Assembly (NCBI RefSeq): GCF_017357105.1
Contig: NZ_CP071596.1
Location: 3,224,001 to 3,288,000 of the forward strand
Direction of reading: 5' to 3'
From: Natronosalvus caseinilyticus
Lineage (GTDB): Archaea > Halobacteriota > Halobacteria > Halobacteriales > Natrialbaceae
Length of the DNA: 64,000 bases
Positions 6,717-45,539 of this stretch are shown here, one piece after another. Below the pieces are notes generated by a model that did no database searches, had not been told where the DNA came from, and saw only the letters and a program-made list of their open reading frames with translations. Positions within the stretch are counted from its first letter, which is position 1; every line of letters begins with the position of its first letter. The position numbers were made by a program, and so were the translations under genes.

Positions 6717-7235
6717 CTAGCGCGAGTCGATCAGGTCGGCGATTTCGTCGCGAACGATCGTTTCGCAGTACGAACAGCGAACCCCGTCCTCGAGGACGTC
6801 GAAGCGGGAGGTGACGGGTTCGTTCTCGGTCGTGATGCAGGTCGCGTTCGGGCAGGTCAGCACGCCTTCGACCTCCTCGGGTCGTTCGACGCGGTGTTTG
6901 CTCGTCACGTCGTACTCGCGGACGATGTTGATCGTCGCGTCGGGCGCGATCAACGAGAGCACGTCGACTTCCTCCTGGCTCAGTTCGCGGCCCTCGACTT
7001 TCACGATGTCCTTGCGGGCGAGTCGGTCGGAGGGGACGTTGATCCCGACAGAGACCTCCTCATCCTGGCTGCCGTCGATGCCGAGGATCGCGAGGACGTT
7101 CAGCGCCTGGCCGCCCCGCACGTGGTCGATGACGGTGCCGTTTCGGATCTTGCTGACGCGGAGTTCGTGGTCCTGATCGTGGTCGTGGTCGGGCTCGTGG
7201 CCGTGATCGTCGTCGTGACCGTGATTATCGCTCAT
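6717..7235 (-). CDS. pyrI: aspartate carbamoyltransferase regulatory chain, with a His-rich N-terminal tail
   Basis: 172 residues. The allosteric domain (about residues 25-115) begins at [15 protein letters not shown] and contains LNVLAILGI. The C-terminal zinc domain has four cysteines in CPNATC and CSYC. In the enterobacterial enzyme this chain binds CTP/ATP and the zinc domain contacts the PyrB trimer. The first 24 residues are almost only His, Asp, Gly and Glu, which is not part of the family core and may bind metal. The start overlaps pyrB by 4 nt, so the chains are translationally coupled. Confidence 0.97.
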
Positions 7236-8152
7236 CGAGACACACCTCCCTCGAGAAGGCGATCGAGCAGCGCCATCCGAACCGGCACCCCGTTGTGGGC
7301 CTGTTCGAAGTACGCCGCGTGATCGGTATCGTCGATCTCGGGCGCGATCTCGTCGACCCGCGGGAGCGGGTGCATCACGGTGAGGTCGTCGCTCGCGGCC
7401 TCGAGCGTCTCGAGATCGATCTGGTACTCGCCGGCGATTCGCTGGTACTCGTTTTCGTCCGGGAACCGCTCGCGCTGGATGCGGGTCACGTAGAGCACGT
7501 CCAGGGAGGCGAGGACCTCCTCGAGGCTCTCGTGTTCGCGCACGGACGCCCCCTCCTGGTGGAGGTCGTAGACGACTTCCCGCGGCAGTTGTAGGCTCTC
7601 CGGACTGACGAAGTGCTGGTGAGCGTCGAAGTTCGATAGCGCGTAGGCCAGCGAGTGGACCGTCCGTCCGTACTTCAGGTCGCCCATGATGCCGATCGAG
7701 AGGTCGTCGAGGCCGGCGTTTTCCCGGATCGTGTAGAGGTCGAGCAGTGTCTGGGTCGGGTGGTGGCCCGCTCCGTCGCCGGCGTTGATCAGCGGGACGT
7801 CGACGAACTCGCTCGCCATCTTCGCAGAGCCCTGACTCGGGTGGCGAACGACGATAGCGTCGGCGTACCCCTCGATGACGCGGACTGTGTCGGCGAGCGT
7901 CTCCCCCTTCTTGACGCTCGAGGATTCGACGGATCCCATGTCGACGACGTCCCCGCCGAGGCGTTTCATGGCCGTCTCGAAGCTCATCTTCGTCCGGGTG
8001 CTCGGTTCGAAAAAGAGCAGGCCGAGGATCGTCCCCTCGTGTTTTCCGGCGACGGCGTCCGGATCGGCGTCGATCTCGGCGGCCCGGTCGAGGACGGCCT
8101 CGATGTCCTCTCGCGTGAGGTGTTTGCTCGTGATGAGGTGATCGTGGCGCAT
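7232..8152 (-). CDS. pyrB: aspartate carbamoyltransferase catalytic chain
   Basis: 306 residues from the ATG at 8150-8152; upstream in-frame sequence is not protein-like. It catalyses carbamoyl phosphate + L-aspartate to carbamoyl aspartate, the second step of pyrimidine synthesis. The carbamoyl-phosphate site is seen in [25 protein letters not shown] and [10 protein letters not shown]. The length matches bacterial and archaeal PyrB (about 305). It is followed directly by pyrI with a 4-nt overlap. A TATA-like AAATAAA element on the minus strand (about 8216-8222) would give a short leader. Confidence 0.97.
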
Positions 8153-25862: not shown

Positions 25863-25885
25863 CGATGGGGCGGCCAGAGGAGGCC

Positions 25886-26446
25886 ATGTTCCAGTTTCCC
25901 ACCGCTCGCCGGGTGGTTCGACGGTACTGCGAGGGCCCGCCTCACTCGAGTACGGCTCCACTAACGGACCGTTCGAACCGGCGCGGGCAAACCGAACCGC
26001 TCGCCGCACTCGTGGCCGTCGCCACGGTCTGTCTCGCACTCGGCGTGTACGCCGGCGCACTCTCAGGGATGGGACAGACGAGCAGCGATCGCTCCGTTGC
26101 AGAACCCACGCTCGAGGCCGTGCACGCGACCATCGCCGCCGACGGCGTCTACGATCCGAACCGGCCGGGCGATTCGCTCGGTAAGATTCCGACGGATCGG
26201 CTGCCTAGCGACCGGACCGTGACGGTGACGGTCACGACGCTCGAGGAAGGTCACCCTGAAACGCGACGCTGGGCGAGGTACGTCGACGGTCGGTACGAGC
26301 GTGGCTCTGCAACGGGTGATCGCCCGCCCTCATCCACCCCGACGCCTGGAGGGAGCGCTGACGACACCGCGACCCGCCCGATCGCCATCCTCGAGCCCTC
26401 GGGGAAGGTGTCGAGCGCAACGCTCTACGTGGAGGTCCGGTCGTGA
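25886..26446 (+). CDS. pilin-like operon, first gene: membrane-anchored protein (DUF7285-type)
   Basis: 186 residues from ATG 25886; AGGAGG directly before it is a Shine-Dalgarno but closely spaced. After an Arg-rich leader, RGQTEPLAALVAVATVCLAL gives a type-IV-pilin-like QTE boundary and a single hydrophobic helix (about residues 36-56). The rest is an extracytoplasmic beta-rich part with a Ser/Thr/Pro linker. Its stop overlaps the next GTG (GTGA). In other haloarchaea such proteins occur near type II/IV secretion ATPases; none lies in this window. Confidence 0.72.
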   Translation: MFQFPTARRVVRRYCEGPPHSSTAPLTDRSNRRGQTEPLAALVAVATVCLALGVYAGALSGMGQTSSDRSVAEPTLEAVHATIAADGVYDPNRPGDSLGKIPTDRLPSDRTVTVTVTTLEEGHPETRRWARYVDGRYERGSATGDRPPSSTPTPGGSADDTATRPIAILEPSGKVSSATLYVEVRS

Positions 26447-27612
26447 CGTCAACGCCCGGCCCCGGGTCGTCAGTGCCTGACCTCCTGTCGTCAGTATCTG
26501 GTCTCGCGTCCGTGGCCGAAACCGAGTCGGCCACGAATGATACCGATCCATCCACGACCGATGATATTGAGTCGGCCGCGGCCAATACCGGCACCCCGAG
26601 GCGCTGCATCGGCGACGGCCGAGCCGTCAGTACGGTCCTCGACGTCGCACTCTGTCTCGTGCTGATGAGCGCCGCCGTCGGCGTCCTCGGCATCTATCTC
26701 GCAGGTGACGAGGATACCGGCCACACTCCCGAAACGGCGACTCACGCGGTCGAACTGCTCGGCTCGACGACAGTCAGCGTCGAATACACGCTCGAACCAG
26801 TCCTCGAGCGCGCCCCCGAGGACGCCTACGCCGATCCGGACGACTACACCAGGAGCGAACTCACGCGCGTGACACACGGTCCGGCCGCTGGCGTTCTCGC
26901 GGACGCCGCACTCGCGAACGTGTCGCTCGAGGACGAACTACTCACGCAGGACGGTCGCCTCTTCGCGACGGCGATCGAGGGGCCGATCGCCAGCGAGTTC
27001 GCGGTCGTCGACGGTGACGTCGCCGTGGCGGCCCACTGGACGCCCTACGAGGGGGCGCCACTCGAGGGACGAGCGCACATCGGTCCAACCCCGTCACCGA
27101 CCGCCGACGTGAGTAGCGTCTCGATGACCGTGCCCAGCGGCTTCGCGCTCGACCGCATCGATGCCGCCGATTTCGCCGGAGACGAGGGTGGCGACGGGGA
27201 CGTAGATGAGAGTGGCGGCGGGAGCAGGAACGAGGGCGAGTACGAGGACGAGAACCCGGACGAAGAGGCGTACCATCCCATCGCAACCAGCGTTTCCACA
27301 GCGATCGTCGAGGGGTACTTCCCGCCGGAACAGACGTCGCTCGTACTCGAGCGCGGCGGCCTCGACCGGGACCGAACCGTCTATCGGTACGAACGGTTCG
27401 CGACTGCCCTGGACGGGATCGATCCTGCCGATCTCGAGACTTCACTCGAACAGTCGAACAGCGACGCACAGGCGGCGAACGCACAGATCGTCGACGCCCT
27501 CGCCGGGTCGATGGCTGCCGATATGGAATCGCGGTTCGATACCCCTGAAGAAGCCGCGGACGCCATCGCGGTCGAGGACGTCACCATCGTCGTACGAGTG
27601 TGGGAGACGTGA
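26443..27612 (+). CDS. pilin-like operon, second gene: membrane-anchored protein (DUF7284-type)
   Basis: 389 residues from GTG 26443, coupled by a GTGA overlap to the first gene. A disordered Ser/Thr leader (about 1-55) precedes DGRAVSTVLDVALCLVLMSA, a hydrophobic helix with a pilin-like character (about residues 58-82). A beta-rich extracytoplasmic region follows, with VEYTLEPVLERAPEDAYADP and a late Gly/Asp/Glu-rich linker (VDESGGGSRNEGEYEDE, about 244-260). The C-terminus is amphipathic. It probably assembles with its neighbours in a surface structure, but no direct evidence. Confidence 0.72.
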   Translation: MTSTPGPGSSVPDLLSSVSGLASVAETESATNDTDPSTTDDIESAAANTGTPRRCIGDGRAVSTVLDVALCLVLMSAAVGVLGIYLAGDEDTGHTPETATHAVELLGSTTVSVEYTLEPVLERAPEDAYADPDDYTRSELTRVTHGPAAGVLADAALANVSLEDELLTQDGRLFATAIEGPIASEFAVVDGDVAVAAHWTPYEGAPLEGRAHIGPTPSPTADVSSVSMTVPSGFALDRIDAADFAGDEGGDGDVDESGGGSRNEGEYEDENPDEEAYHPIATSVSTAIVEGYFPPEQTSLVLERGGLDRDRTVYRYERFATALDGIDPADLETSLEQSNSDAQAANAQIVDALAGSMAADMESRFDTPEEAADAIAVEDVTIVVRVWET

Positions 27613-30600
27613 CCCGAACGCCCACCATCTCGCTCGCGGACGACGACCGTGGGCGAGTCCCGTTCGCGCTCATCGGTGTACTGTTGCTCGTCAGCAGTAT
27701 CACTCTCGTGGGTGCACTCGAGTCGCGACCGGCCCCCGAATCCGACGTCGATCCCGCCGTCGCGATGGATCGAACGACCGCCGCGACGCAAACGGCCATC
27801 CGACACGCGGTCCTGGACGCGACCGATCAGGTCGCCAGCGAGCCGATTATCGAACCCGCGAACACTCCTTACGGGGACCTCGTCAACGCCAGTAGCGACC
27901 GCGAAATCCTCGAAAACTACCTCGCCCTTCGGATTTACCTGAACGTACAGAGGAACCTCGCGGGCGCCGGGCAGCACGTCCGCGGAACGACCACGACCGT
28001 CTCCGTCCCGCCCGCGACCGACCTCGAGTCGCTCGAACGTGGGATGGATCGGATGACGGTCTCGGCGGACGACGTCGGCCGCCTCGAGGTGACGATCGAC
28101 GGCGTCCGAACGGCCGTCGAACGCGACGGCGAGACGGTCGCGAGCCGCGTCGAACCCGTGACGGTCTCCGTGCCGACGCCGCTATTCGAACTGCAGCGCC
28201 GGACGGCCGCCTACGAGACCGCTCTCAACACCGGTGCGCTCGAAGGATCGGGCTTTGGCCGGCAATTCAGTGGCCGACTGTACCCGCTCGCGTGGGCCCG
28301 CGGCTACGCCCAGTACGCCGGTATGCCGGTCTCGGAGGTGATCGCCAATCGCCACGTCGAGGTGACGGCCAACAGCGCCGCCTATGCGACCCAGCGCGGC
28401 GTCTTCGGTACCCAGGACGCCGATGGCGGCGACGCCATGCGCCAGGCCTGGCTCTGTCTCGCGGCCAAAGACGGCGACGACCTCTACGGCGGCTACAACG
28501 ACGGCGAGTCACCGAGTATCGACAGCCAGGACGTGTGTGACTCCCTCCAGTACGTCTACGGCGATCAGGTCGGCGGCAATCCGCCCGAGGCACCGTCACT
28601 GCAGGACCTCTCCGGTCACGCACCCGGGATGGACGAAGAACAGACGATCGCCGTTAGCGAGAGCGCGTACATGCCGCTTCGATACATGTTCGACGAGGAC
28701 AACGAGCACTCGATTCCGGCGGCGTTCGACCGGGTCTATACCGTCGACGCCGCCTCGATTGTCGCCATCGACGAAACACACACGCGCGCAGAACCCGCCC
28801 CACCCGACGAAGGCGCACACTGGGAGCGTCTGGATCGCTCGCCGAGAACGTACCGTAACACGACGGTCACCGACGTCATCGTTCGCAATCCTGGTCGGGC
28901 GAGTTCGTACTACACCTACGACGCCACCGTCGTCAACGGCTTCGAACGCACCGCGACCTGGAACGACACCCGCACGAACGAGACCGAACGGATCGAGACG
29001 AACGCGACCGGGACGAGTACGTTCGACGTGCGCGTTCGTCTGTACGAAGCCGATCACAGCCCGGACTCGAAGGTCAAAGCCCGGGCCGAGTACGGCGTTC
29101 ACCGAAAGTACGGCGGGACCGGCGTCTACTCGAGTGACTTCAGCGACGTCCCCGACAGAGCTGCGAACGCGTTCGTCGGCGCACGCACCGAAACCGGTTT
29201 CGAGCGGCTGCTTGCGGACGCCGCCGTCGAGGCTCACTCCGGGGCCGACCTCGAGCGTTCCCTCGAAATTCCGTCGCGAAAACGACTCGACGCCGGCTAC
29301 GAGTATGGCGTCCTCGAGGCCGACGTGATCGATGATCTCACCGCGATCCAGGCGGACCTCGAAGGCCTCGAGGTGACCTTCGAACGTGCGGACATGATCA
29401 AAGAACCTGGCGAGGACGGGCCCGTCGAGGATTTGATCGCGAAGGTCGAGGCTGAACGGGATACCTACCTCGAGCGGAACAGACCGTACGCCGATCCAGC
29501 GGAAAAGGCGACGTACGAGGCTCGGCTCGCGTACTTCGAACTCCTGCTCTCTGACCTGGAGGCTGTGGCCGAAACGCACGACGACGTGATGGGCGAACTG
29601 GACGACGAACTCGAGGAGGCGAACTCCGGATTAGCGGATGCGACGGCGTACATGCAGGAGGCGATGAGTACGTCAGAACCGGAACCGGAGCCGATCGAGG
29701 AGGTTCCGTTGCTCGAGGGGGTGAGCTATCGGGTGTCGGGGTCGCCGTCGTATCTGGTGACGGAGAACGTGACGGCCGAGCGAGTGCCGGCGGTGGGAAA
29801 CGATTCGGAATTTGCGCCGATGGCGACGCGAAATTCGAACTACTTCTCGATTCCGTACGATTCGGTGATGACGGGTATTCTGTCGAAGATTCCGAGGTTG
29901 GATCTCGGAGAGGAAGAGCAGCGGGTGCCGATGCGGACGGCGGGGGAGACGTTGCGGGCGGCGAAGTTGGCAGAGGCGGTAGGGGCTGGTTTGAACGAAG
30001 AGGTGGATGATATTGAAGGAATTATAGGCAGTTCATTCACTGGGTTATCTGGCGATATTGCTTTTGATGTGAGTATCGAATTATTCGATGAAGATAAAAC
30101 CAATATTGTAAGAGTTAACTCAAAAGTTGAAGAGTCGATTAAAGAGACACTGAATGATTGGGGGCCAATTGATGAAACAGCGATAGCTTTAGGAGATGGT
30201 GCTGTTACTGAACCGATCACTGAAGTGATTGTCGAAGAGTTAAGCGACGAGTATCCAGACGAGTTTGAGGGGCGACAAGAAGCGTGGGAAGCAAAGGTTG
30301 CAGCCATTGCTCGGCCGATTGTTACAGAGAGTATTGCAGACCAAACTGTTTCCTTCGATAATAGGTTAGATGACCTTGATGAAGAGATCCGGAAAAAAGT
30401 TGAGGGAAAAACAGATGAGGTAATTAAAGAACGTCTCGAGAACGCGGAAATCGTCAACGAAGAGGGTGATATCGTAATTAGTGATGAAGAGGACTGGTTA
30501 CAAGGAGACTCCCCGAAACGTGTTCCTGCTGGCATTCCAATTACCCCAGTCCCGGGATACTGGGTTGCGACGGCGAACGTGTGGGACGTGGATGTGGAAG

Positions 30601-30890
30601 CAAAGTACGCTCGATTTGAAGTTGCAGCCAATACTGGAACACCGCTGGTTACTGAAGGAACGACCTATGTTCGAGAGGACAAGAACGTTTCAGTAAATAT
30701 TGGTGGCAACCAGAAGCGACTAGGTTCAAATAAGGCAATATCGTTTCGAGGGGGCACAGTCGTCGTAATTGTTGTTCCACCTGGTGGACAAGGAGTTGGT
30801 GATCGTACAGGAGTTAGAACTGAATGTACAGAAACATGGCCCGATGTTGGGTATCTCGAAAACAGCGAGACAGTAGCCTGTGGCTCCTAG
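27609..30890 (+). CDS. pilin-like operon, third gene: very large membrane-anchored surface protein (DUF7286-type), with an AT-rich 3' part
   Basis: 1093 residues from GTG 27609 (GTGA overlap with the second gene); GTG 27600 is possible. One N-terminal helix (about residues 13-33: FALIGVLLLVSSITLVGAL) anchors a long extracytoplasmic part with YARGYAQYAGM-like segments, several helical stretches and coiled-coil-like region (about 560-680). Around codon 790 the DNA shifts from about 67% GC to about 28-40% GC within 120 nt, and codon use becomes A/T-ending to the end. The frame stays open, so it is either a chimera or a transferred 3' end. It converges on the propeller lipoprotein gene. Confidence 0.75.
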   Translation: MTRTPTISLADDDRGRVPFALIGVLLLVSSITLVGALESRPAPESDVDPAVAMDRTTAATQTAIRHAVLDATDQVASEPIIEPANTPYGDLVNASSDREILENYLALRIYLNVQRNLAGAGQHVRGTTTTVSVPPATDLESLERGMDRMTVSADDVGRLEVTIDGVRTAVERDGETVASRVEPVTVSVPTPLFELQRRTAAYETALNTGALEGSGFGRQFSGRLYPLAWARGYAQYAGMPVSEVIANRHVEVTANSAAYATQRGVFGTQDADGGDAMRQAWLCLAAKDGDDLYGGYNDGESPSIDSQDVCDSLQYVYGDQVGGNPPEAPSLQDLSGHAPGMDEEQTIAVSESAYMPLRYMFDEDNEHSIPAAFDRVYTVDAASIVAIDETHTRAEPAPPDEGAHWERLDRSPRTYRNTTVTDVIVRNPGRASSYYTYDATVVNGFERTATWNDTRTNETERIETNATGTSTFDVRVRLYEADHSPDSKVKARAEYGVHRKYGGTGVYSSDFSDVPDRAANAFVGARTETGFERLLADAAVEAHSGADLERSLEIPSRKRLDAGYEYGVLEADVIDDLTAIQADLEGLEVTFERADMIKEPGEDGPVEDLIAKVEAERDTYLERNRPYADPAEKATYEARLAYFELLLSDLEAVAETHDDVMGELDDELEEANSGLADATAYMQEAMSTSEPEPEPIEEVPLLEGVSYRVSGSPSYLVTENVTAERVPAVGNDSEFAPMATRNSNYFSIPYDSVMTGILSKIPRLDLGEEEQRVPMRTAGETLRAAKLAEAVGAGLNEEVDDIEGIIGSSFTGLSGDIAFDVSIELFDEDKTNIVRVNSKVEESIKETLNDWGPIDETAIALGDGAVTEPITEVIVEELSDEYPDEFEGRQEAWEAKVAAIARPIVTESIADQTVSFDNRLDDLDEEIRKKVEGKTDEVIKERLENAEIVNEEGDIVISDEEDWLQGDSPKRVPAGIPITPVPGYWVATANVWDVDVEAKYARFEVAANTGTPLVTEGTTYVREDKNVSVNIGGNQKRLGSNKAISFRGGTVVVIVVPPGGQGVGDRTGVRTECTETWPDVGYLENSETVACGS

Positions 30891-31700
30891 GAAATCTCTT
30901 CGAAAGTCCACTTACTCGAGCGCATAGATCGTTCCTTCCCCAGTCCCGATGAAAAGCATCCCATCGGTTAACGCAGGCTCAGATACTATATTCCCACTCG
31001 TCTCATAATACCACAGCTCTTCGCCCGTTGTGTTGTCAAAAGCATAAACACCATCAGGTGAACCGGTATATAAAGTCTCATCAGTAAGAGAGACACCTCC
31101 TCCGAATCCTCCAGATGCCGTTTCCCATTGGAGACTGCCATCTAGAGCATCTGCACACGCAATACCGTTCCTTGTTGTAGCGAAGACAGAACCATCATGA
31201 TATGAAGTAGATGATATGACCATTTCACTAACTTCACAAGTCCATATGATTTCCCCGTTATAGAGATCAAACGCATAGATTGCTTCACTGCCTTGGGACC
31301 CTACATAGAGATAATCCTCATTAGCAGCAAATCCCATCATTGTATTATCCATCTCAGTTTCCCAAAGTCGTTCTTGAGTTTCAAGATCAATGGCATATAT
31401 GTAATGGGGAACACCGACCGCATAGAGTATACCATTTGATACCGTTGTCGTTCTTGTTCCCCGGCCGCGTATTTCATGGGTCCATTCAATATCACCTGTT
31501 TGGCAGTCAAGTGCAACAATTTGCCCATCATCAGTGTTTGTATAGAGAGTCCCGTCAAAAACTGTTGGACTGCCTAAGGCAGCAAGTCTATCCCTGAAAC
31601 TGTCCCATATTTTATCACCAGTTTGTTTATTCCATGCGACAACGTCTCCTCCTCCATCATTAACATACAACTTATCATCCAATACCGTTGCAGTCTCTCC
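30000..31700. other. AT-rich island inside two convergent genes
   Basis: Counted samples: 29941-30000 is 40/60 GC, 30001-30060 is 24/60, 30061-30120 is 17/60, 31321-31380 is 23/60, 31561-31620 is 27/60 and 31861-31920 is 38/60. The island therefore covers the C-terminal coding part of the pilin-like third gene and most of the lipoprotein gene, whose first about 130 codons are again GC-rich. No repeats, tRNA or transposase mark the edges. Confidence 0.85.
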
Positions 31701-32126
31701 AAAATTTGAAGCGCCCCGGTCCACCGACCACTCAATCTCCCCTTCGAGCAAATCAATCGCGTAAAATGTCGAATCCCAACTTCCAATATACGCCGTCCCA
31801 TCGGCAATTGCTGCTCCACCCGTAATCCGGCCACCGGTCTGGAGTCGCCATCGCTCCGAAACGGAGTCCGTTGGGCCGGTCGCGGTTGGGTGATATCCCG
31901 TATTCTGGATGTCGACGCCGGCCATCGGCCACTCGTCGCTCGAGACCGTCGGTTCCTCACCGGGTCCACCCGAAATGAGTCCACCATTGCTCGATCCAGT
32001 GGATTGAGAGTCGTTCGAGTCGGTTTTCGGCGAATCGGAACTGCCGAAATCGGCACACCCGGCGAGGCTCGTGACGCTTGCACCAACGCACGTTGCGAGC
32101 CATCGTCGTCTCGTCTGGGAAGGCAT
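30912..32126 (-). CDS. PQQ-like beta-propeller lipoprotein
   Basis: 404 residues. A Tat-type leader (SQTRRRWLATCVG) ends in the lipobox LAGC at about residue 24, followed by a Ser/Asn/Asp-rich linker. Then about seven repeats with the Trp-Ala/Ser and Asp-containing PQQ/BamB pattern: WPMAGVDIQNTGYHP, AYIGSWDSTFYAIDLLEGE, LYVNDGGGDVVAWNKQTGD, LYTNTDDGQIVALDCQTGD and so on. Repeats are propeller blades, probably surface-exposed. The first third is GC-rich and the rest AT-rich. Convergent with the pilin-like operon; its own TATA element is at 32145-32157. Confidence 0.9.
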   Translation of the reverse strand: MPSQTRRRWLATCVGASVTSLAGCADFGSSDSPKTDSNDSQSTGSSNGGLISGGPGEEPTVSSDEWPMAGVDIQNTGYHPTATGPTDSVSERWRLQTGGRITGGAAIADGTAYIGSWDSTFYAIDLLEGEIEWSVDRGASNFGETATVLDDKLYVNDGGGDVVAWNKQTGDKIWDSFRDRLAALGSPTVFDGTLYTNTDDGQIVALDCQTGDIEWTHEIRGRGTRTTTVSNGILYAVGVPHYIYAIDLETQERLWETEMDNTMMGFAANEDYLYVGSQGSEAIYAFDLYNGEIIWTCEVSEMVISSTSYHDGSVFATTRNGIACADALDGSLQWETASGGFGGGVSLTDETLYTGSPDGVYAFDNTTGEELWYYETSGNIVSEPALTDGMLFIGTGEGTIYALE

Positions 32127-32144
32127 TGACCGACAGAGGTAGTA

Positions 32145-32157
32145 AAACTATAAGAAT
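32145..32157 (-). promoter_or_regulatory. TATA element of the propeller lipoprotein gene
   Basis: The minus strand reads TTCTTATAGTTTT here, centred about 25 nt before the ATG at 32126, fitting a leaderless start. Confidence 0.55.
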
Positions 32158-32178
32158 GTAATGACTTGATTTTACAAT

Positions 32179-32189
32179 CTTAATATAGG
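32179..32189 (+). promoter_or_regulatory. TATA-like element before the 32.2 kb gene
   Basis: CTTAATATAGG lies 23-33 nt before ATG 32212, supporting that start over the internal ATG 32251. Confidence 0.45.
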
Positions 32190-32211
32190 AATATCGAATC
32201 GAAACACGTCG

Positions 32212-32676
32212 ATGAAAACCGACTTGGTGCTGACCGACCTTTCCTCAGGTATGTTCTACGACCAGCGCCTTTCCGTCCCCGAATCCGCCACCGCGCTTCG
32301 AGCCGAATACGACGACGACCTTCGGTCGGCACTCGAGCACGCTGGCCTCGAGCACGCCGAGACCGAAACCGACGTCGACCGATCGAAACTGAAGGCGCTC
32401 CGCGACAGGGAGGCACCGGACCTGACTCTCGAGGAGGCCGCCCAGATTCAGTCGCTCGAGGATGGCGAGCCCGACCCGGAGACGATCGTCGAACTCGCGG
32501 GTGAACACCTGCTGTTGGGAATGACGACGGCCGTCGTCGACGTGGATACGCTTGCGGCCGACCTCGACGGCGGCCTCGGCGCCACGGAGATTCAACAGAA
32601 GATCGAACGCCGCGCACCGATGACGTTCGAGGAGTACGTCGCGATTCAGTACGCAATCGTCGACCGCGGTATGTGA
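32212..32676 (+). CDS. DUF5791-type acidic helical protein
   Basis: 154 residues from ATG 32212; ATG 32251 is a possible shorter start. It contains FYDQRLSVPESATALRAEYD, then LTLEEAAQIQSLEDGEPD and a terminal RRAPMTFEEYVAIQYAIVDR. This looks like the haloarchaeal DUF5791 family, a small acidic cytosolic protein of unknown function. It is followed by an SDR-family gene in the same direction. Confidence 0.75.
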   Translation: MKTDLVLTDLSSGMFYDQRLSVPESATALRAEYDDDLRSALEHAGLEHAETETDVDRSKLKALRDREAPDLTLEEAAQIQSLEDGEPDPETIVELAGEHLLLGMTTAVVDVDTLAADLDGGLGATEIQQKIERRAPMTFEEYVAIQYAIVDRGM

Positions 32677-40298: not shown

Positions 40299-40466
40299 TA
40301 GCTTCCACATTCCAACCTGTGGCGCGAGCCGAACAGGTGCCCGCCGTCGCCCGCGGGCCGACGAGTCGATTGGTGCTATCAGCGTGGCGGGTATAAGCGC
40401 TTCGAACCGTTCGTTCGCGAGTGTACGTCGACTGAACGGGATCACTCGTGGCACCGAACGCGTTCG

Positions 40467-42110
40467 TCAATAGCCGCCCGGCGGTGGCTGTTTGAAGTCG
40501 CTGCCTGAGAGCCGACCGACGATCCATAGCGCCGCAATCGGCAGGCCGATCAACAGAGCGACCGCCAGTAGCGCGTCAACCGCGTCGACCAGGGCCGCGG
40601 CGACCAGCACGAACACGGTGACGACGAGCACGGCGGCAACCTGGATCCGGAGCCTGTCTCGAGCGACCCCACGGAGGGTCGACGCCGAGGCCCAGTCGGC
40701 GTCCACGCCGATCGAACCGGCGAGCGCGAGCACGGCGAGGAGCGCCAGCGTCACTGGAGCGAGGGCGTGCCAGCGCTGACTTGGGGGATCGACGGCGCCG
40801 ATGCCGTACATCGCGAGAGCGGCGAGGCCGACGCCGAGGCCGCCGACGACGACCGTCGCCGTCGCGTGAACGAGTTCCGTCTGCCGGCTGTCGGTCCACG
40901 GGCCGAGGTGCGTTCGTATTCCCTGGGTTCGCTCGGAGAGGTCCCAGACCGTGATCGCCGCGGCGACGGCGAGGAATACCCCGATCGGACTCGTACCCAC
41001 GCGCGATCCGACGAACGCGACGCCCAGTATCGAGCCACAGCCGAGTCGCCGAAGCCAGCGCCGCGGTTCGTCGACTCCCGAGGCGAGCGACGCGACCACC
41101 AACTCGACAACGACGACGGCCAGCAGCGAACCGAACACCGCCCAGATCGCCAGCAGCGGATCGATCGACGGGACGGCCGATGCGACGAGGAACGCCACGG
41201 GTGGGACGACCACGCCGCCGGTCGCGAACGCAGCCGTTCGAAGCGGGTACGGTCCGAACCAGGCGCGAAGCGGCGGCGTGGCCAACCACCCGAGACAGAT
41301 CACCACCGCGCCGAGGGCTACGCCCAGGAGAACGACGTGGAGGCCGCCGCTCCACAGGACGGCCAGCACGAGCGTTCCGACTGGTCCCATCGCACGCAGC
41401 ACCGAGTCGATCGCGTCACCCGTTCCCGGGGCCGCCAGAACGAAGCCGGCGACGACGAGGACGTAGTAGCCACCCGTCGGAAGGTCGGCGACGCGGCCCA
41501 CCACCGACCGAAACGTCAGCGGTGACGTCCGGTCGAGACGGGCCAGTTCGAGGACGGTCCCTGCACACGAAGCCAGGAGCACCGCCACGGCGAGCAACGC
41601 GAGGACGGAGAGAACACTCGCGTGGGTACTGCTCGTCAGCGCCTCGAGTAGTACCGCCGTCGCGAAAAACAGCGTGCCGACGGCACCGGTCGCCAGCAGG
41701 TACGTCCCGGCCACGACGGGCAGGGACGTCACCGTCGAATCGCGAACCGACCAGGCGAACGACGCCCAGTCGGTCGTCGCGTCGACCCCAGCGGCGCCGA
41801 CGGCGAGGATCGCCAGGGAAGCCCCGGCGACCAGAAGCGCCTCGACGACGCCCTCGAGGACGGCCACGTTGAACCCGACGATAACCGCGAACAGACCTCC
41901 CGTAACGAGCACGCTGCCGACGGCCCGTCGACCGAGCCGGTCCGACGCGGCGAGCGCGACGCCCCAAACCACTCCGAGGGCGCCGAAGCCAGCTACCGTC
42001 CCCGGGAGTTCGACGCCAGCCCCCCAGCAGACGCCGACCGTCGTCAGCACCGCCAGGAGCGTGGCGGCCGTTCCTAGATCCGCGGATTCGTTCGTGCGTT
42101 CCGCACTCAC
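40467..42110 (-). CDS. polytopic membrane protein of the DUF58 operon (DUF7519-type)
   Basis: 547 residues from GTG 42110, overlapping the DUF58 stop by GTGA. About 12-14 hydrophobic helices are spread along the whole protein (LGTAATLLAVLTTVGV, AVGSVLVTGGLFAVIVGF, TLVLAVLWSGGLHVVLLGVA, LRIQVAAVLVVTVFVLVAAA and others). No transporter signature is visible. It is the last gene of the leftward four-gene operon. Polytopic proteins accompany DUF58 proteins in haloarchaea, so a joint membrane complex is inferred. Confidence 0.78.
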   Translation of the reverse strand: MSAERTNESADLGTAATLLAVLTTVGVCWGAGVELPGTVAGFGALGVVWGVALAASDRLGRRAVGSVLVTGGLFAVIVGFNVAVLEGVVEALLVAGASLAILAVGAAGVDATTDWASFAWSVRDSTVTSLPVVAGTYLLATGAVGTLFFATAVLLEALTSSTHASVLSVLALLAVAVLLASCAGTVLELARLDRTSPLTFRSVVGRVADLPTGGYYVLVVAGFVLAAPGTGDAIDSVLRAMGPVGTLVLAVLWSGGLHVVLLGVALGAVVICLGWLATPPLRAWFGPYPLRTAAFATGGVVVPPVAFLVASAVPSIDPLLAIWAVFGSLLAVVVVELVVASLASGVDEPRRWLRRLGCGSILGVAFVGSRVGTSPIGVFLAVAAAITVWDLSERTQGIRTHLGPWTDSRQTELVHATATVVVGGLGVGLAALAMYGIGAVDPPSQRWHALAPVTLALLAVLALAGSIGVDADWASASTLRGVARDRLRIQVAAVLVVTVFVLVAAALVDAVDALLAVALLIGLPIAALWIVGRLSGSDFKQPPPGGY

Positions 42111-43747
42111 GAGGACCACCGCCGTTTTCCTCGGTCGATCGCGACGTGGAGCGACTCGTCGGGGTGCCACTCGACGACGCGAACGCCGTGGCTGCGAAGC
42201 GTCGACCGCCGACGGTCCGCCTCGAGGCGCTCGAGTGCCGCCGTGTCGTCGGATCGTTCGGTCACCGCCGGGCAGACGACCGTCACCTCGTGGCCGTACG
42301 CGCGGAATCGCCGGGCGGACGCGACGGGGTCGTCGTCGAGCAGCGGGGTCACGAAGACGAGCTGTTTCTCGTCGGCCAGGTGCCGGCAGAACCGGTCGAC
42401 TGCGCGGTCGCCGTGGGCGAGCCACGAGGGGCGACCGAACGAGCCGCACCACTCCCCGTCGAGCAACCGGCGAACGCGTGCCAGCTGGTCGCGGCCAGTC
42501 CGCGGGAGCAGGTAATCGCCGCGACCGCCGTAGAGGGCGACGCCGACGCGGTTGTTCTCGGCTAGTAGGGTGGTCGCCAGCCACTCGGTCGCCCGGACCG
42601 AGAGCGCCCGGGCGTCGAGTTCGCCCGGTTCGCGAACGACCGCGTTGTCGTCTCGTGCGTCGACGACTACGACGACCGACGCGGCCCGCTCCTCGCGGAA
42701 CTCGATGGTCGTCAACTCGCCGGTGCGGGCGAGTCGCTTCCAGTCGACGCGGCGCATCGGGTCGCTCGGCTGGAAGGGGCGAAGCGAGTAAAACTCGAGC
42801 CCCTCGCCCCCGACGTCGGTCTCGACCCGGCCGGTGTGCTGGATCGTCTGGCCTGCGAGCGGGAGCCGCTCGAGTGCGTCGTTCCACGACAGGCAGTCCG
42901 TGTTCGCTTCCTCCCCCTCGTCACCGCTATCGCTGTCGTCTTCGCCGTTGCCTGTACCGTCGCCATCGTCACCGCCGTCGATCCCGAACTCGTACCGCGT
43001 CACCTGCCGTTCGCTCCCGCTGACGTTCCGGGTTTCGACGACGACGTCACCGAAGACGTGCGTGCCCCGTCGGGGACGGACGACGTACTCGAGCGCGACC
43101 GATTCGCCCGGAGACAGACTACTGATCGCCCGGGTTTCCCCCTCGACCGCCAGGTCGACCGGCGGCTCGTCGGCCACCCGAACGTCCGGAACGGCGTCGC
43201 TCCCCCGGTTGGTCACCTCGACGGAGACCGAAACGGACTCGCCGGGGACGGGGGCTGACGGCTCGAGTCGGCGCTCGACGTCGAACGTCGAGGACGGCGG
43301 TGTCGTCGCGTAGCCGTAGGCAGCGTACGTGAGGGCGACGACGGACGAGAGGAAGATGGTTGCGTCGCGAGCCAGGACGCCGGTGCCGATGGCGAGCAGA
43401 GCGATCCCGAGAGCGACCGTCCAGCGGTCGCTCGAGTCAGTCTGCTGGTCGGCGACGGTCCCCGCCGTTCGAACGGACCGTTCGTCGTCTGTGAGGACGC
43501 CTGTACGCTCGGTCTCGTCTCCGCTTTCGCCAGCGCTCGAGTCTCCGTTCCAGCCATCACTCGAGGATCGTGATGACTCGCTCACCTCACCGGAGGTGGT
43601 ACCAGAATCCGTCGAAGCCGCCGTCTGCGAGACCCCCGACCCCGTTTCCGAACGGACGTCGGCGCCGCTCTCCTGGTCGAGAACCGTCTCGGAGCCGCCC
43701 TCGCGATCCACGTCGCCGCCGAGATCGAGCGCGTTCGCGTCGCTCAT
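42107..43747 (-). CDS. DUF58 domain-containing membrane protein
   Basis: 546 residues from the ATG at 43745-43747. A Ser/Gly/Asp/Glu-rich N-terminus (about 1-95) is followed by two hydrophobic segments (about 100-135: TVALGIALLAIGTG, then IFLSSVVALTYAAYG). Then comes an extracytoplasmic beta domain (VSVEVTNRGSDAVPDVRVAD) and the DUF58 core SDPMRRVDWKRLARTGEL, TTIEFREERAASVVVVVDAR, which has a von-Willebrand-A-like fold. It overlaps the upstream gene by ATGA. DUF58 proteins usually work with a MoxR AAA+ ATPase; none is encoded here. Confidence 0.9.
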   Translation of the reverse strand: MSDANALDLGGDVDREGGSETVLDQESGADVRSETGSGVSQTAASTDSGTTSGEVSESSRSSSDGWNGDSSAGESGDETERTGVLTDDERSVRTAGTVADQQTDSSDRWTVALGIALLAIGTGVLARDATIFLSSVVALTYAAYGYATTPPSSTFDVERRLEPSAPVPGESVSVSVEVTNRGSDAVPDVRVADEPPVDLAVEGETRAISSLSPGESVALEYVVRPRRGTHVFGDVVVETRNVSGSERQVTRYEFGIDGGDDGDGTGNGEDDSDSGDEGEEANTDCLSWNDALERLPLAGQTIQHTGRVETDVGGEGLEFYSLRPFQPSDPMRRVDWKRLARTGELTTIEFREERAASVVVVVDARDDNAVVREPGELDARALSVRATEWLATTLLAENNRVGVALYGGRGDYLLPRTGRDQLARVRRLLDGEWCGSFGRPSWLAHGDRAVDRFCRHLADEKQLVFVTPLLDDDPVASARRFRAYGHEVTVVCPAVTERSDDTAALERLEADRRRSTLRSHGVRVVEWHPDESLHVAIDRGKRRWSS

Positions 43748-44406
43748 GGGTCCGTCCTCCCTCGCGATCGGGAAGATGCGCCGGATCGACGGGTTCCGGA
43801 ATCCGACCGCGTCGCGAGGTGGTTCTCGATTGGCACCTCCCGCAGCGCCGCCAACTCGGCCAGCGCCGCCTCGAGCTGTCGCTGTTCTCGGCGACCGGCG
43901 AGCCAGTCGAACAGTTGCATTTTCGCCGGCACCGACACCGATCCAGACAGGTAGGCGGCCGCCCGCGGGTCGTCGGTCCACGTCCCCGACTGCACCCGCT
44001 CGCGTGCCTCATCCACGCCGTGGTCGTCGGCCATCAGCGTCGTCATCACCGCGTCAGTTACGGCGACCCGGGTCCGGTTTCGGGCCCGCACTCGGAGCAC
44101 ACGCTGGTCCCGGGGCTCGTCGAGGGACCCTCGCTCGAGCGCACGTTCGAGGTCGGCGCCGATCCGCTCGACGTCCGACTCGACGCGCTCGTCCGCGCGC
44201 CCGATTCGTGCGTTCGGTCCGGTATCGGTCTCGGCCGCGACCGAATGCAGGACGCCCAGCCCCAGCAGGGCAGCGACGCCGCCGGCGACGAGGACGATCC
44301 CGTCCCGGGCGATGGCGCCCGCCGCCGAGGGGAGCGATCCAGTCGTCGACAGGAGCGTTGCCAGCAGGGCGCCCGCTCCGACGAGGAGTAGGAGCGTTCG
44401 CTTCAC
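43744..44406 (-). CDS. small two-helix membrane protein of the DUF58 operon (DUF7269-type)
   Basis: 220 residues. Two hydrophobic helices (about 1-25 and 35-52) at the N-terminus are followed by a soluble, charged, helical part (DRVESDVERIGADLERAL, then DQRVLRVRARNRTRVAV), a region with FDWLAGRREQRQLEAALAEL and an Arg/Ser-rich tail. It overlaps both neighbours by ATGA and is therefore translationally coupled within the operon. The family is haloarchaeal and the function is unknown. Confidence 0.75.
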   Translation of the reverse strand: MKRTLLLLVGAGALLATLLSTTGSLPSAAGAIARDGIVLVAGGVAALLGLGVLHSVAAETDTGPNARIGRADERVESDVERIGADLERALERGSLDEPRDQRVLRVRARNRTRVAVTDAVMTTLMADDHGVDEARERVQSGTWTDDPRAAAYLSGSVSVPAKMQLFDWLAGRREQRQLEAALAELAALREVPIENHLATRSDSGTRRSGASSRSRGRTDP

Positions 44407-45539
44407 TCCCGATCACCGTCCTCGTGGGAAGCCGTCGCGACAATTCGGTCGTAGGCCGCTCGAGCCCGACGAATACGGTCGTCCGTCGGTGGGTAGTTTC
44501 CGTACCGTACCTGTCGGAACGTCTCGGTGAGCGTCGACACGGCGGATTCGGGGAAACCGGCGTCGACCGCCGCACTGGCGTATTCACCTGGCGTTTTCGA
44601 TCGATCCCGTCGCGCGGAGATGAGTTCGGTCAGCGCGGCCCAGGCTTCCTCGACCGTCTGCGGACCGGGGTCGTCCCCTGTTTCGGGCTCGTCCTCGTCT
44701 TCATCGCGGTTGCCATTGCCTCGAGTGGCCGTTCCCGATCCAGACCGGCTGGAACGTCGACGGCGGGTGAAGCCACCGAAGAGCGACGCGACGCCGCCGG
44801 AGATCGAGAGCCCGCCGAGCGAACCCAGTGTCCTCGACAAACCGGCCGGAATCGAGACCAGCGCGGAGCCGAGCCCGCGCCCGAGACCCCGACCGACCAG
44901 CCCGATCCCGGATCCGATAGCTCGACCGGTTCCGACGACGCCGTCGACGATCGCTGGCGTCACCCGCGCGAGTCCGATCGTCGCCGTCATCGTCACCTGG
45001 GGAATTCGCTTGAGTCGAAACTGCAATCGGGGGAGGAAGCCGTCCGGAATCGTCACGTCGGCGTTCGCGACGCCGGGGGCTCGAGAGGGGTGCGTCGCCC
45101 GCCAGAGCAGGCCAATCGGGACGACGAGCAGACAGGCGAGGAGCAGACCGGCGGCCGGAAGGAAACCGACGCTGGCGCTGCTATCGTCGTCGCTTTCGTC
45201 GCTAGTCTCGTTGGTACCGCTCTCGTCGTCGACTGTTTCGTTTTCGTCGTCCGTCTCGTTCGTCTCCTCGGCGTCCGAGTCGTTCGCCCGGCCGACGGAT
45301 TCTTCGTCGGGCGTCGACTCGTTCGCGTCGGGGTCGTCACTTCGCTCGCTGTCGCGGTCGTCGGTGCCGTTCTCGCCGTCGGTCTCGGGTCCGGACTCGA
45401 GGTCGAGGTAGTGGTCGTCGCTCACGGCGTCCTGGTCGGGGTAGTCGCCGTAGCCGGCCGCGGGGAGGAACGCGGCGGCGGCGAGGATCGCGAGGACACA
45501 ACAGACGACGAGGGCGGCGTTGTGGCGGTCGTATCCCAC
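44403..45539 (-). CDS. DUF4129 domain-containing protein, first gene of the DUF58 operon
   Basis: 378 residues from GTG 45539. An N-terminal hydrophobic segment (ALVVCCVLAILAAAAFLPAA) suggests a signal or anchor. A long acidic Asp/Glu/Ser/Thr/Asn linker (about 35-130) precedes a second hydrophobic helix (FLPAAGLLLACLLVVPIGLLW). The C-terminal DUF4129 domain is helical: KTPGEYASAAVDAGFPESAV and YPPTDDRIRRARAAYDRI. Such domains sit on the outer side in transglutaminase-like complexes. A TATA-like TAAAAATATTA precedes the start at 45567-45577. Confidence 0.82.
   Translation of the reverse strand: MGYDRHNAALVVCCVLAILAAAAFLPAAGYGDYPDQDAVSDDHYLDLESGPETDGENGTDDRDSERSDDPDANESTPDEESVGRANDSDAEETNETDDENETVDDESGTNETSDESDDDSSASVGFLPAAGLLLACLLVVPIGLLWRATHPSRAPGVANADVTIPDGFLPRLQFRLKRIPQVTMTATIGLARVTPAIVDGVVGTGRAIGSGIGLVGRGLGRGLGSALVSIPAGLSRTLGSLGGLSISGGVASLFGGFTRRRRSSRSGSGTATRGNGNRDEDEDEPETGDDPGPQTVEEAWAALTELISARRDRSKTPGEYASAAVDAGFPESAVSTLTETFRQVRYGNYPPTDDRIRRARAAYDRIVATASHEDGDRE

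What the first reader, a model, noticed from the sequence alone, without database searches (positions are those of the whole stretch)
29940..31740. AT-rich island spanning the ends of two convergent reading frames
Counted GC falls from 40/60 (29941-30000) to 17/60 (30061-30120), stays near 38-45% through 31620, and recovers to 38/60 by 31861-31920. Both borders lie inside genes whose frames remain open: the third gene of the pilin-like operon and the propeller lipoprotein. Codons become A/T-ending without a stop. This looks like replacement of the C-terminal half of a surface protein and most of its convergent neighbour, as seen in variable surface structures. A recombination at two points inside coding sequence fits better than simple insertion.
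Basis: partly seen in the sequence, partly recalled or inferred. Interest (0 to 1): 0.7.

Follow-up and report, generated by a model that had tools for sequence, protein, structure and literature searches.

The report
Swappable AT-rich segment across two genes
In this salt-loving archaeon, a 1.8-kb AT-rich stretch covering the tail ends of two facing surface-protein genes is a long-standing exchangeable segment: the same low-GC stretch sits at the same place in related species, but its sequence is replaced or traded between them while everything around it stays conserved.

Summary
Observation confirmed. GC falls from about 63% to 46% over about 29,950-31,750, the only stretch of the 64-kb window whose 1-kb GC is below 55%. 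Both borders lie inside open genes: DUF7286 (27600-30890 +) and a convergent PQQ-propeller lipoprotein (30912-32126 -).

The swap reading is half right. The composition break is not a recent insertion: four congeners (Natronosalvus) and another genus carry it at the same DUF7286 residue (~800), the congeners also at about the same propeller residue. Yet the island is exchanged. In two species pairs, syntenic DNA is about 88-92% identical while the island drops to about 50-65%, with synonymous sites saturated in its most variable parts. In a third pair the AT-rich part of DUF7286 is nearly identical (1 mismatch in ~910 bp; 4.3% elsewhere), from the composition border to the stop codon. Two draft assemblies, one a MAG, break at the same DUF7286 border.

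Alleles stay monophyletic by genus. Orthologues without the propeller mostly lack the GC drop. Best reading: an old variable cassette, exchanged by homologous recombination within genera, encoding the variable parts of two envelope proteins. Function is inferred.

The parts
25865..26446 (+). DUF7285 protein, first gene of a three-gene operon
   Evidence: PF23956 E 2.9e-24; conserved upstream in most orthologous loci
26443..27612 (+). DUF7284 protein, second gene; truncated by the deletion in sister species G002
   Evidence: PF23955 E 3.6e-77; G002 copy stops matching at residue 248
27600..30890 (+). DUF7286 protein, 1,096 aa, third gene of the operon
   Evidence: PF23957 full length E 5.7e-236; orthologues
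27600..29969 (+). conserved GC-rich part of DUF7286 (residues 1-790)
   Evidence: 82-100% aa identity to G007 in 50-residue bins, GC3 0.74-0.90; residues 61-785 dS 0.28
29625..29990 (+). tract of G-ending codons directly before the left border
   Evidence: 4-fold third positions about 80% G, 5% C; also in G007 and G003, weaker in G001/G005
29940..29990 (+). left seam of the exchangeable segment, at the conserved TAGETLRAA stretch
   Evidence: identity to G007 falls 0.93 to 0.42 here; G022/G083 tract starts at the equivalent place; G004 and G139 contigs end at residues 790 and 788
29950..31750 (.). AT-rich exchangeable island (GC 0.46)
30000..30449 (+). most variable DUF7286 segment (residues 801-950), predicted helical domain
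   Evidence: 39-52% aa identity with pS 0.67-0.73 between close species; AlphaFold helices within 778-948, pLDDT mostly 74-92
30450..30887 (+). C-terminal conserved beta region of DUF7286 (PAGxPIxPVPGYWxATANVW ... GVGDRTG)
   Evidence: alignment A2; low-confidence strands in the model
30912..32126 (-). PQQ beta-propeller lipoprotein, convergent, 21 bp between the two stop codons
   Evidence: PF13360 E 5e-42; convergent orthologue beside DUF7286 in 20 of 33 loci
31767..32126 (-). conserved GC-richer N-terminal part of the propeller protein (residues 1-120, signal and lipobox)
   Evidence: 87% aa identity to G007, dS 0.42; alignment A3
31725..31770 (-). right seam of the exchangeable segment
   Evidence: identity to G007 rises 0.50 to 0.84 here; second syntenic BLAST block starts at 31,752
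30915..31751 (-). variable AT-rich propeller part (residues ~126-404)
   Evidence: 50% aa identity to G007, 32% between G001 and G005, synonymous sites saturated
32212..32676 (+). DUF5791 protein, conserved right neighbour
   Evidence: PF19104 E 2e-46; directly follows DUF7286 in propeller-less loci

Best explanation
The AT-rich island is an old allelic cassette that spans the variable C-terminal parts of two convergent genes: residues ~800-1096 of a DUF7286 protein and residues ~125-404 of a propeller lipoprotein. Different low-GC alleles circulate among related strains and species. They are exchanged by homologous recombination anchored in the conserved GC-rich N-terminal parts of the two genes and their flanks, so the seams stay fixed while the inside changes. 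SHOWN: replacement in two species pairs, homogenisation of the DUF7286 part in a third, shared seam and shared low GC. INFERRED: homologous recombination after mating or uptake is the route; diversifying (probably frequency-dependent) selection, for example by viruses or in cell recognition, keeps the alleles apart; the two proteins are exported, pilin-like and lipoprotein-like, and act together at the cell surface; low GC persists because alleles stay within the cassette pool.
For: (a) Same composition break at DUF7286 residue ~800 in G000, G007, G003, G001, G005 and G022, and near propeller residue 100-125 in the five congeners. (b) G001 vs G005: ~92% nt over 7.0 kb left and 9.1 kb right, island ~50-60%; neighbouring genes dS 0.24-0.42, DUF7286 801-950 pS 0.73, propeller 126-end pS 0.78. 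G000 vs G007: flanks 88-90% in BLAST blocks, DUF7286 801-950 pS 0.67 and propeller 126-end pS 0.81 against dS 0.17-0.38 in neighbouring genes. Mutation at a fixed clock cannot do this. (c) G022 vs G083: 1 mismatch in ~910 bp against 4.3% around it, starting at the composition border and ending at the stop codon (Poisson 4e-16). (d) G001/G005 DUF7286 residues 61-785 have dS 0.07 against 0.24-0.42 in neighbouring genes: a second recombination footprint ending at the seam. (e) Draft contigs of G004 and of the Tc-Br11_E2g1 MAG end at DUF7286 residues 790 and 788. (f) Orthologues without the propeller mostly lack the GC drop (mean 0.001 vs 0.120, U-test 1.3e-6), including the paralogue pair inside G011. 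(g) G002 lost DUF7286 and propeller together.
Against: No strain-level genomes were available, so exchange within a species is inferred from species pairs and contig breaks. G131/G134 show no exchange. In G000/G007 the last ~146 residues of DUF7286 stay 90% identical (pS 0.47), so the exchanged unit is mosaic rather than one block. In G022/G083 only the DUF7286 part was homogenised, so the two variable parts need not move together. The U-test loci are not phylogenetically independent, and propeller-less G129 shows a GC dip. Function is not shown: no solved or predicted structural relative was found for the C-terminal part.
Confidence: 0.75

Rival explanations
1. A single recent foreign replacement: AT-rich DNA from a distant donor recombined into this genome at two points inside the genes.
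For: Sharp composition change inside two open frames; island diverged from the closest orthologues that still carry it.
Against: The same break exists in all congeners whose sequence covers it and in Natribaculum; island alleles are monophyletic by genus; no relative of the DUF7286 part on plasmids and none of either part in viral contigs.
Confidence: 0.05
2. A vertically inherited, fast-evolving low-GC domain under relaxed or diversifying selection, without exchange.
For: Composition is conserved across the genus; G131/G134 diverge evenly through the locus.
Against: Synonymous sites are saturated inside the island but dS is 0.07-0.49 beside it in the same genes (G001/G005); G022/G083 share a near-identical tract that stops at the border; poorly conserved N-terminal bins, such as residues 151-200 (44% identity to G001), still have GC3 0.74-0.90, so fast evolution alone does not lower GC.
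Confidence: 0.08
3. Intragenomic switching from silent cassettes, as in pilE/pilS or vlsE systems.
For: Variable C-terminus, conserved N-terminus, fixed seam.
Against: The island DNA has no second copy in the own genome, and DUF7286 has one copy there; no repeat shared by both seams beyond chance-like matches.
Confidence: 0.03
4. The C-terminal part of DUF7286 is a toxin tip and the propeller its immunity partner (polymorphic-toxin or Rhs-like logic).
For: GC-rich conserved core, AT-rich variable C-terminus and a linked variable partner resemble Rhs and CDI modules (general knowledge; Rhs tips, PMC2935791).
Against: The DUF7286 C-terminal ~110 residues are conserved family-wide, including loci without the propeller; the partner is an exported convergent lipoprotein with its own conserved N-terminus, not a co-directional small cytoplasmic gene.
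Confidence: 0.06

Closest known systems
VARTIG modules of Thermococcales (PMC8416519)
   Same: Archaeal; large, probably surface protein with a conserved front and a C-terminal part diversified by recombination between species at a fixed locus
   Different: VARTIG uses Ig domains and varied downstream genes; here there are no Ig domains, the partner is a convergent propeller, both genes are cut internally, and the segment is AT-rich. The VARTIG authors searched for analogues in other archaea and found none closely resembling it
Rhs genes with exchangeable C-terminal tips (PMC2935791)
   Same: [quoted passage not shown] GC-rich core with AT-rich tip is from general knowledge
   Different: Rhs tips are displaced and left behind as fragments downstream; here alleles replace each other between two seams, with no leftover copies
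Haloquadratum walsbyi cell-wall genomic island (PMC4535781, listed, not read)
   Same: Haloarchaeal surface locus that differs between members of a natural population
   Different: That is a whole-gene island; this one is 1.8 kb and lies inside two genes
O-antigen and capsule loci of bacteria (general knowledge)
   Same: Persistently AT-rich alleles exchanged by recombination in conserved flanks
   Different: Multi-gene sugar-synthesis loci, not the coding ends of two protein genes

Membership tests
DUF7286 (PF23957) | Full-length match over the curated cut-off | tested here: met
   786.9 bits vs cut-off 27, model 1-1000
DUF7286 (PF23957) | Operon with DUF7285 and DUF7284, followed by DUF5791 and an epimerase | tested here: met
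   Window and most orthologous loci; in this clade the propeller is inserted before DUF5791
PQQ/BamB-type propeller lipoprotein | Propeller repeats and lipobox | tested here: met
   PF13360 E 5e-42; RRRW and LAGC motifs visible in the sequence
Type IV pilus or Tad-like component | Class III signal followed by a hydrophobic stretch | tested here: inconclusive
   N-terminus DDRGRVPFALIGVLLLVSSITLV looks pilin-like by eye; no signal predictor available
Type IV pilus or Tad-like component | Linked secretion ATPase and TadC | tested here: not met
   Secretion ATPases lie elsewhere in the genome (nearest about 145 kb away); DUF7287 lies near a different one at C1:477-482 kb; TadC was not searched
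VARTIG | Ig-domain core protein | tested here: not met
   Only DUF7286 is found in Pfam
Polymorphic toxin (Rhs/CDI) | Toxin C-terminus with a co-directional immunity gene | tested here: not met
   Convergent lipoprotein partner; C-terminal ~110 residues conserved family-wide
Cassette-switching antigen (pilS or vls type) | Silent copies in the same genome | tested here: not met
   Single copy of the island and of DUF7286
Allele exchange at a fixed locus | Island divergence out of step with the flanks, with fixed seams | tested here: met

The most novel reading that the evidence does not exclude
The two convergent genes form a matched specificity pair: the helical variable domain of the DUF7286 protein and the variable propeller blades recognise each other or a common ligand, and the tail-to-tail layout keeps both halves inside one short exchange tract with seams set by a dedicated feature (for example the G-codon tract at the left seam), giving archaea a compact recognition locus comparable in logic to self/non-self loci.
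Probability: 0.15. Interest if true: 0.85.

Novelty: new variant of a known kind. Interest (0 to 1): 0.62.

Why it matters
Low-GC islands are usually read as recent foreign DNA. Here the composition has been kept for at least the age of a genus, although synonymous sites inside have turned over to saturation, so something maintains it while the sequence is exchanged. It gives a compact, testable diversifying surface locus in haloarchaea, where the targets of virus-driven or mating-driven diversification are poorly known, and it shows exchange cutting two neighbouring genes at once. The general lesson is practical: composition alone dates an island wrongly, and comparing synonymous divergence inside and outside tells replacement from age.

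Tried and rejected
Silent cassettes in the own genome: none. Carriage of either variable part by viruses: none found in IMG/VR. Carriage of the DUF7286 part on plasmids: no match. Seam repeats: one inverted pair, 29,936/31,640, 19 nt at 84%; its propeller arm encodes NDGGGDV, which is absent from the G007 protein, so treated as chance. Structure: DUF7286 full length (mean pLDDT 60) and C-terminal part (58) gave no Foldseek match below E 0.6 and no sequence match in the PDB below E 0.09. An early alignment mixed strands and frames and was discarded. Literature: no paper in the held library mentions DUF7286.
Full report
WHAT IS THERE. GC is about 0.6 until 30,000, 0.375 at 30,000-30,199, and stays at 0.38-0.52 until about 31,750. 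29,401-32,400 is the only part of the 64 kb in which 1-kb windows fall under 0.55, and 29,951-31,750 has GC 0.458. The left border lies in a 1,096-aa DUF7286 gene that matches its Pfam model from end to end; the right border lies in a convergent PQQ-propeller gene with a twin-arginine and lipobox start. The stop codons are 21 bp apart. Upstream genes of the operon are DUF7285 and DUF7284, with a divergent CetZ gene beyond; downstream are DUF5791 and an epimerase.

THE COMPOSITION BREAK IS OLD. The convergent pair is present in four other species of the genus (G007, G003, G001, G005; G005 is Natronosalvus hydrolyticus AArc-curdl1) and in other genera, including Natribaculum (G022). In all six loci compared, GC3 of DUF7286 falls from 0.72-0.82 before residue ~800 to 0.30-0.48 after it. 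In the five Natronosalvus loci the propeller falls near residue 100-125; in Natribaculum its fall comes later.

YET THE SEQUENCE IS EXCHANGED. G001 and G005 align over 18 kb at about 92% nt, except 1.7 kb that is exactly the island, at about 50-60%. dS is 0.24-0.42 in neighbouring genes, but synonymous sites are saturated in DUF7286 801-950 (pS 0.73) and in propeller 126-end (pS 0.78, 32% aa identity). G000 (this genome) and G007 show the same at 29,950-31,750: BLAST blocks in the flanks are 88-90% identical, and in a 64-kb sliding comparison the lowest-identity segment is 30,901-31,900 (0.59), with 29,901-30,500 at 0.65. The same comparison shows other stretches at 0.65-0.68 around 40,501-45,400, but these are not AT-rich. 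The end of DUF7286 (residues 951-1096) stays 90% identical in this pair, so the island is mosaic. Residues 61-785 of G001/G005 have dS 0.07, several times below their neighbours, so this gene part was itself recently shared between the two lineages, up to the seam.

The converse is seen in G022/G083: these differ by about 4.3%, but from -908 relative to the DUF7286 stop codon to the stop codon itself there is one mismatch where about 39 are expected (Poisson 4e-16). A hypervariable segment cannot be that similar by constraint; it was transferred. The tract starts at the composition border.

Trees agree. In the conserved DUF7286 part the G001 and G005 branches are 0.016 and 0.005; in the AT-rich part they are 0.66 and 0.76; in the variable propeller part 0.88 and 1.07. 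All five congeners still form one clade in every part. So alleles come from a pool within the genus, not from distant AT-rich organisms.

Two draft assemblies break at the left seam: G004 at residue 790 and G139 (the MAG Natrialbaceae archaeon Tc-Br11_E2g1) at residue 788. The partner contigs resume in the propeller near residue 80 (G004) and at DUF7286 residue 941 (G139). The chance of both left ends falling within 30 bp of the seam is about 6e-5, noted after the fact. Forks between coexisting alleles would do this, but reads were not available, and whether G004 is a MAG is not known.

ORIGIN OF THE LAYOUT. In many other haloarchaea DUF7286 is followed directly by DUF5791, with no propeller. 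Across 33 loci, those with the convergent propeller have a mean GC drop of 0.120 and those without it 0.001 (one-sided U-test 1.3e-6). Loci are not independent and G129 is a partial exception, but the two paralogues inside G011 follow the rule. G002, a close relative of this genome over the shared flanks, has lost everything from within DUF7284 to the first codons of the propeller, so the pair went together.

MECHANISM. Shown: allele replacement, allele sharing, a common left seam, low GC in all alleles. Inferred: homologous recombination in the conserved flanks after mating or DNA uptake; papers on haloarchaeal gene exchange were listed but not read. No silent copies, no carrier in viral contigs, none on plasmids for the DUF7286 part, and no seam repeats were found. 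Diversifying selection is the simplest reason for alleles this different. The lipobox, and the pilin-like N-terminus of DUF7286 seen by eye, place both proteins at the envelope; a pilus role is not established, since secretion ATPases lie elsewhere. AlphaFold gives a helical domain at residues ~778-948, matching the most variable segment, with otherwise low confidence, and no structural relative was found.

WHY LOW GC PERSISTS. Foreign origin does not explain it, because synonymous sites have turned over to saturation and still remain AT-rich. Fast evolution alone does not either: poorly conserved N-terminal bins, such as residues 151-200, keep GC3 of 0.74-0.90. My proposal, untested, is that each allele has a small effective population and cannot recombine with unlike alleles, so GC-raising forces (codon selection, biased gene conversion) act weakly there.

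COMPARISON. The nearest described system is VARTIG of Thermococcales, with a C-terminus diversified by exchange between species; its authors looked for analogues in other archaea and found none closely resembling it. Rhs tips are exchanged within clades but leave displaced fragments. This locus differs by cutting two convergent genes and by its fixed, AT-rich segment. I call it a new variant of a known kind.

Noticed in passing
window 29625-29990: About 120 codons of DUF7286 directly before the left seam use almost only G-ending codons (4-fold sites about 80% G, 5% C; GC skew up to +0.5); shared by G007 and G003, weaker in G001, G005 and G022. Unexplained.
   Followed up: partly
L063 (G002) 6959-7800: A close relative of this genome has a deletion fusing the middle of DUF7284 to the start of the propeller gene, so DUF7286 and the propeller are gone.
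   Followed up: partly
window 40400-45400: Second diverged stretch against G007 and G002 (about 65-69% nt in several segments), not AT-rich; it holds an 806-aa DUF7519 frame and a 746-aa frame without a Pfam match.
   Followed up: partly
L069 and L070 (G011): Genome G011 carries two DUF7286 loci: one with a convergent propeller and a GC drop, one without either.
   Followed up: partly
L034 4770-6950 (G001 vs G005): The conserved part of DUF7286 is unusually similar between two species (dS 0.07 against 0.24-0.42 in neighbouring genes), a footprint of recent exchange beside the island.
   Followed up: yes
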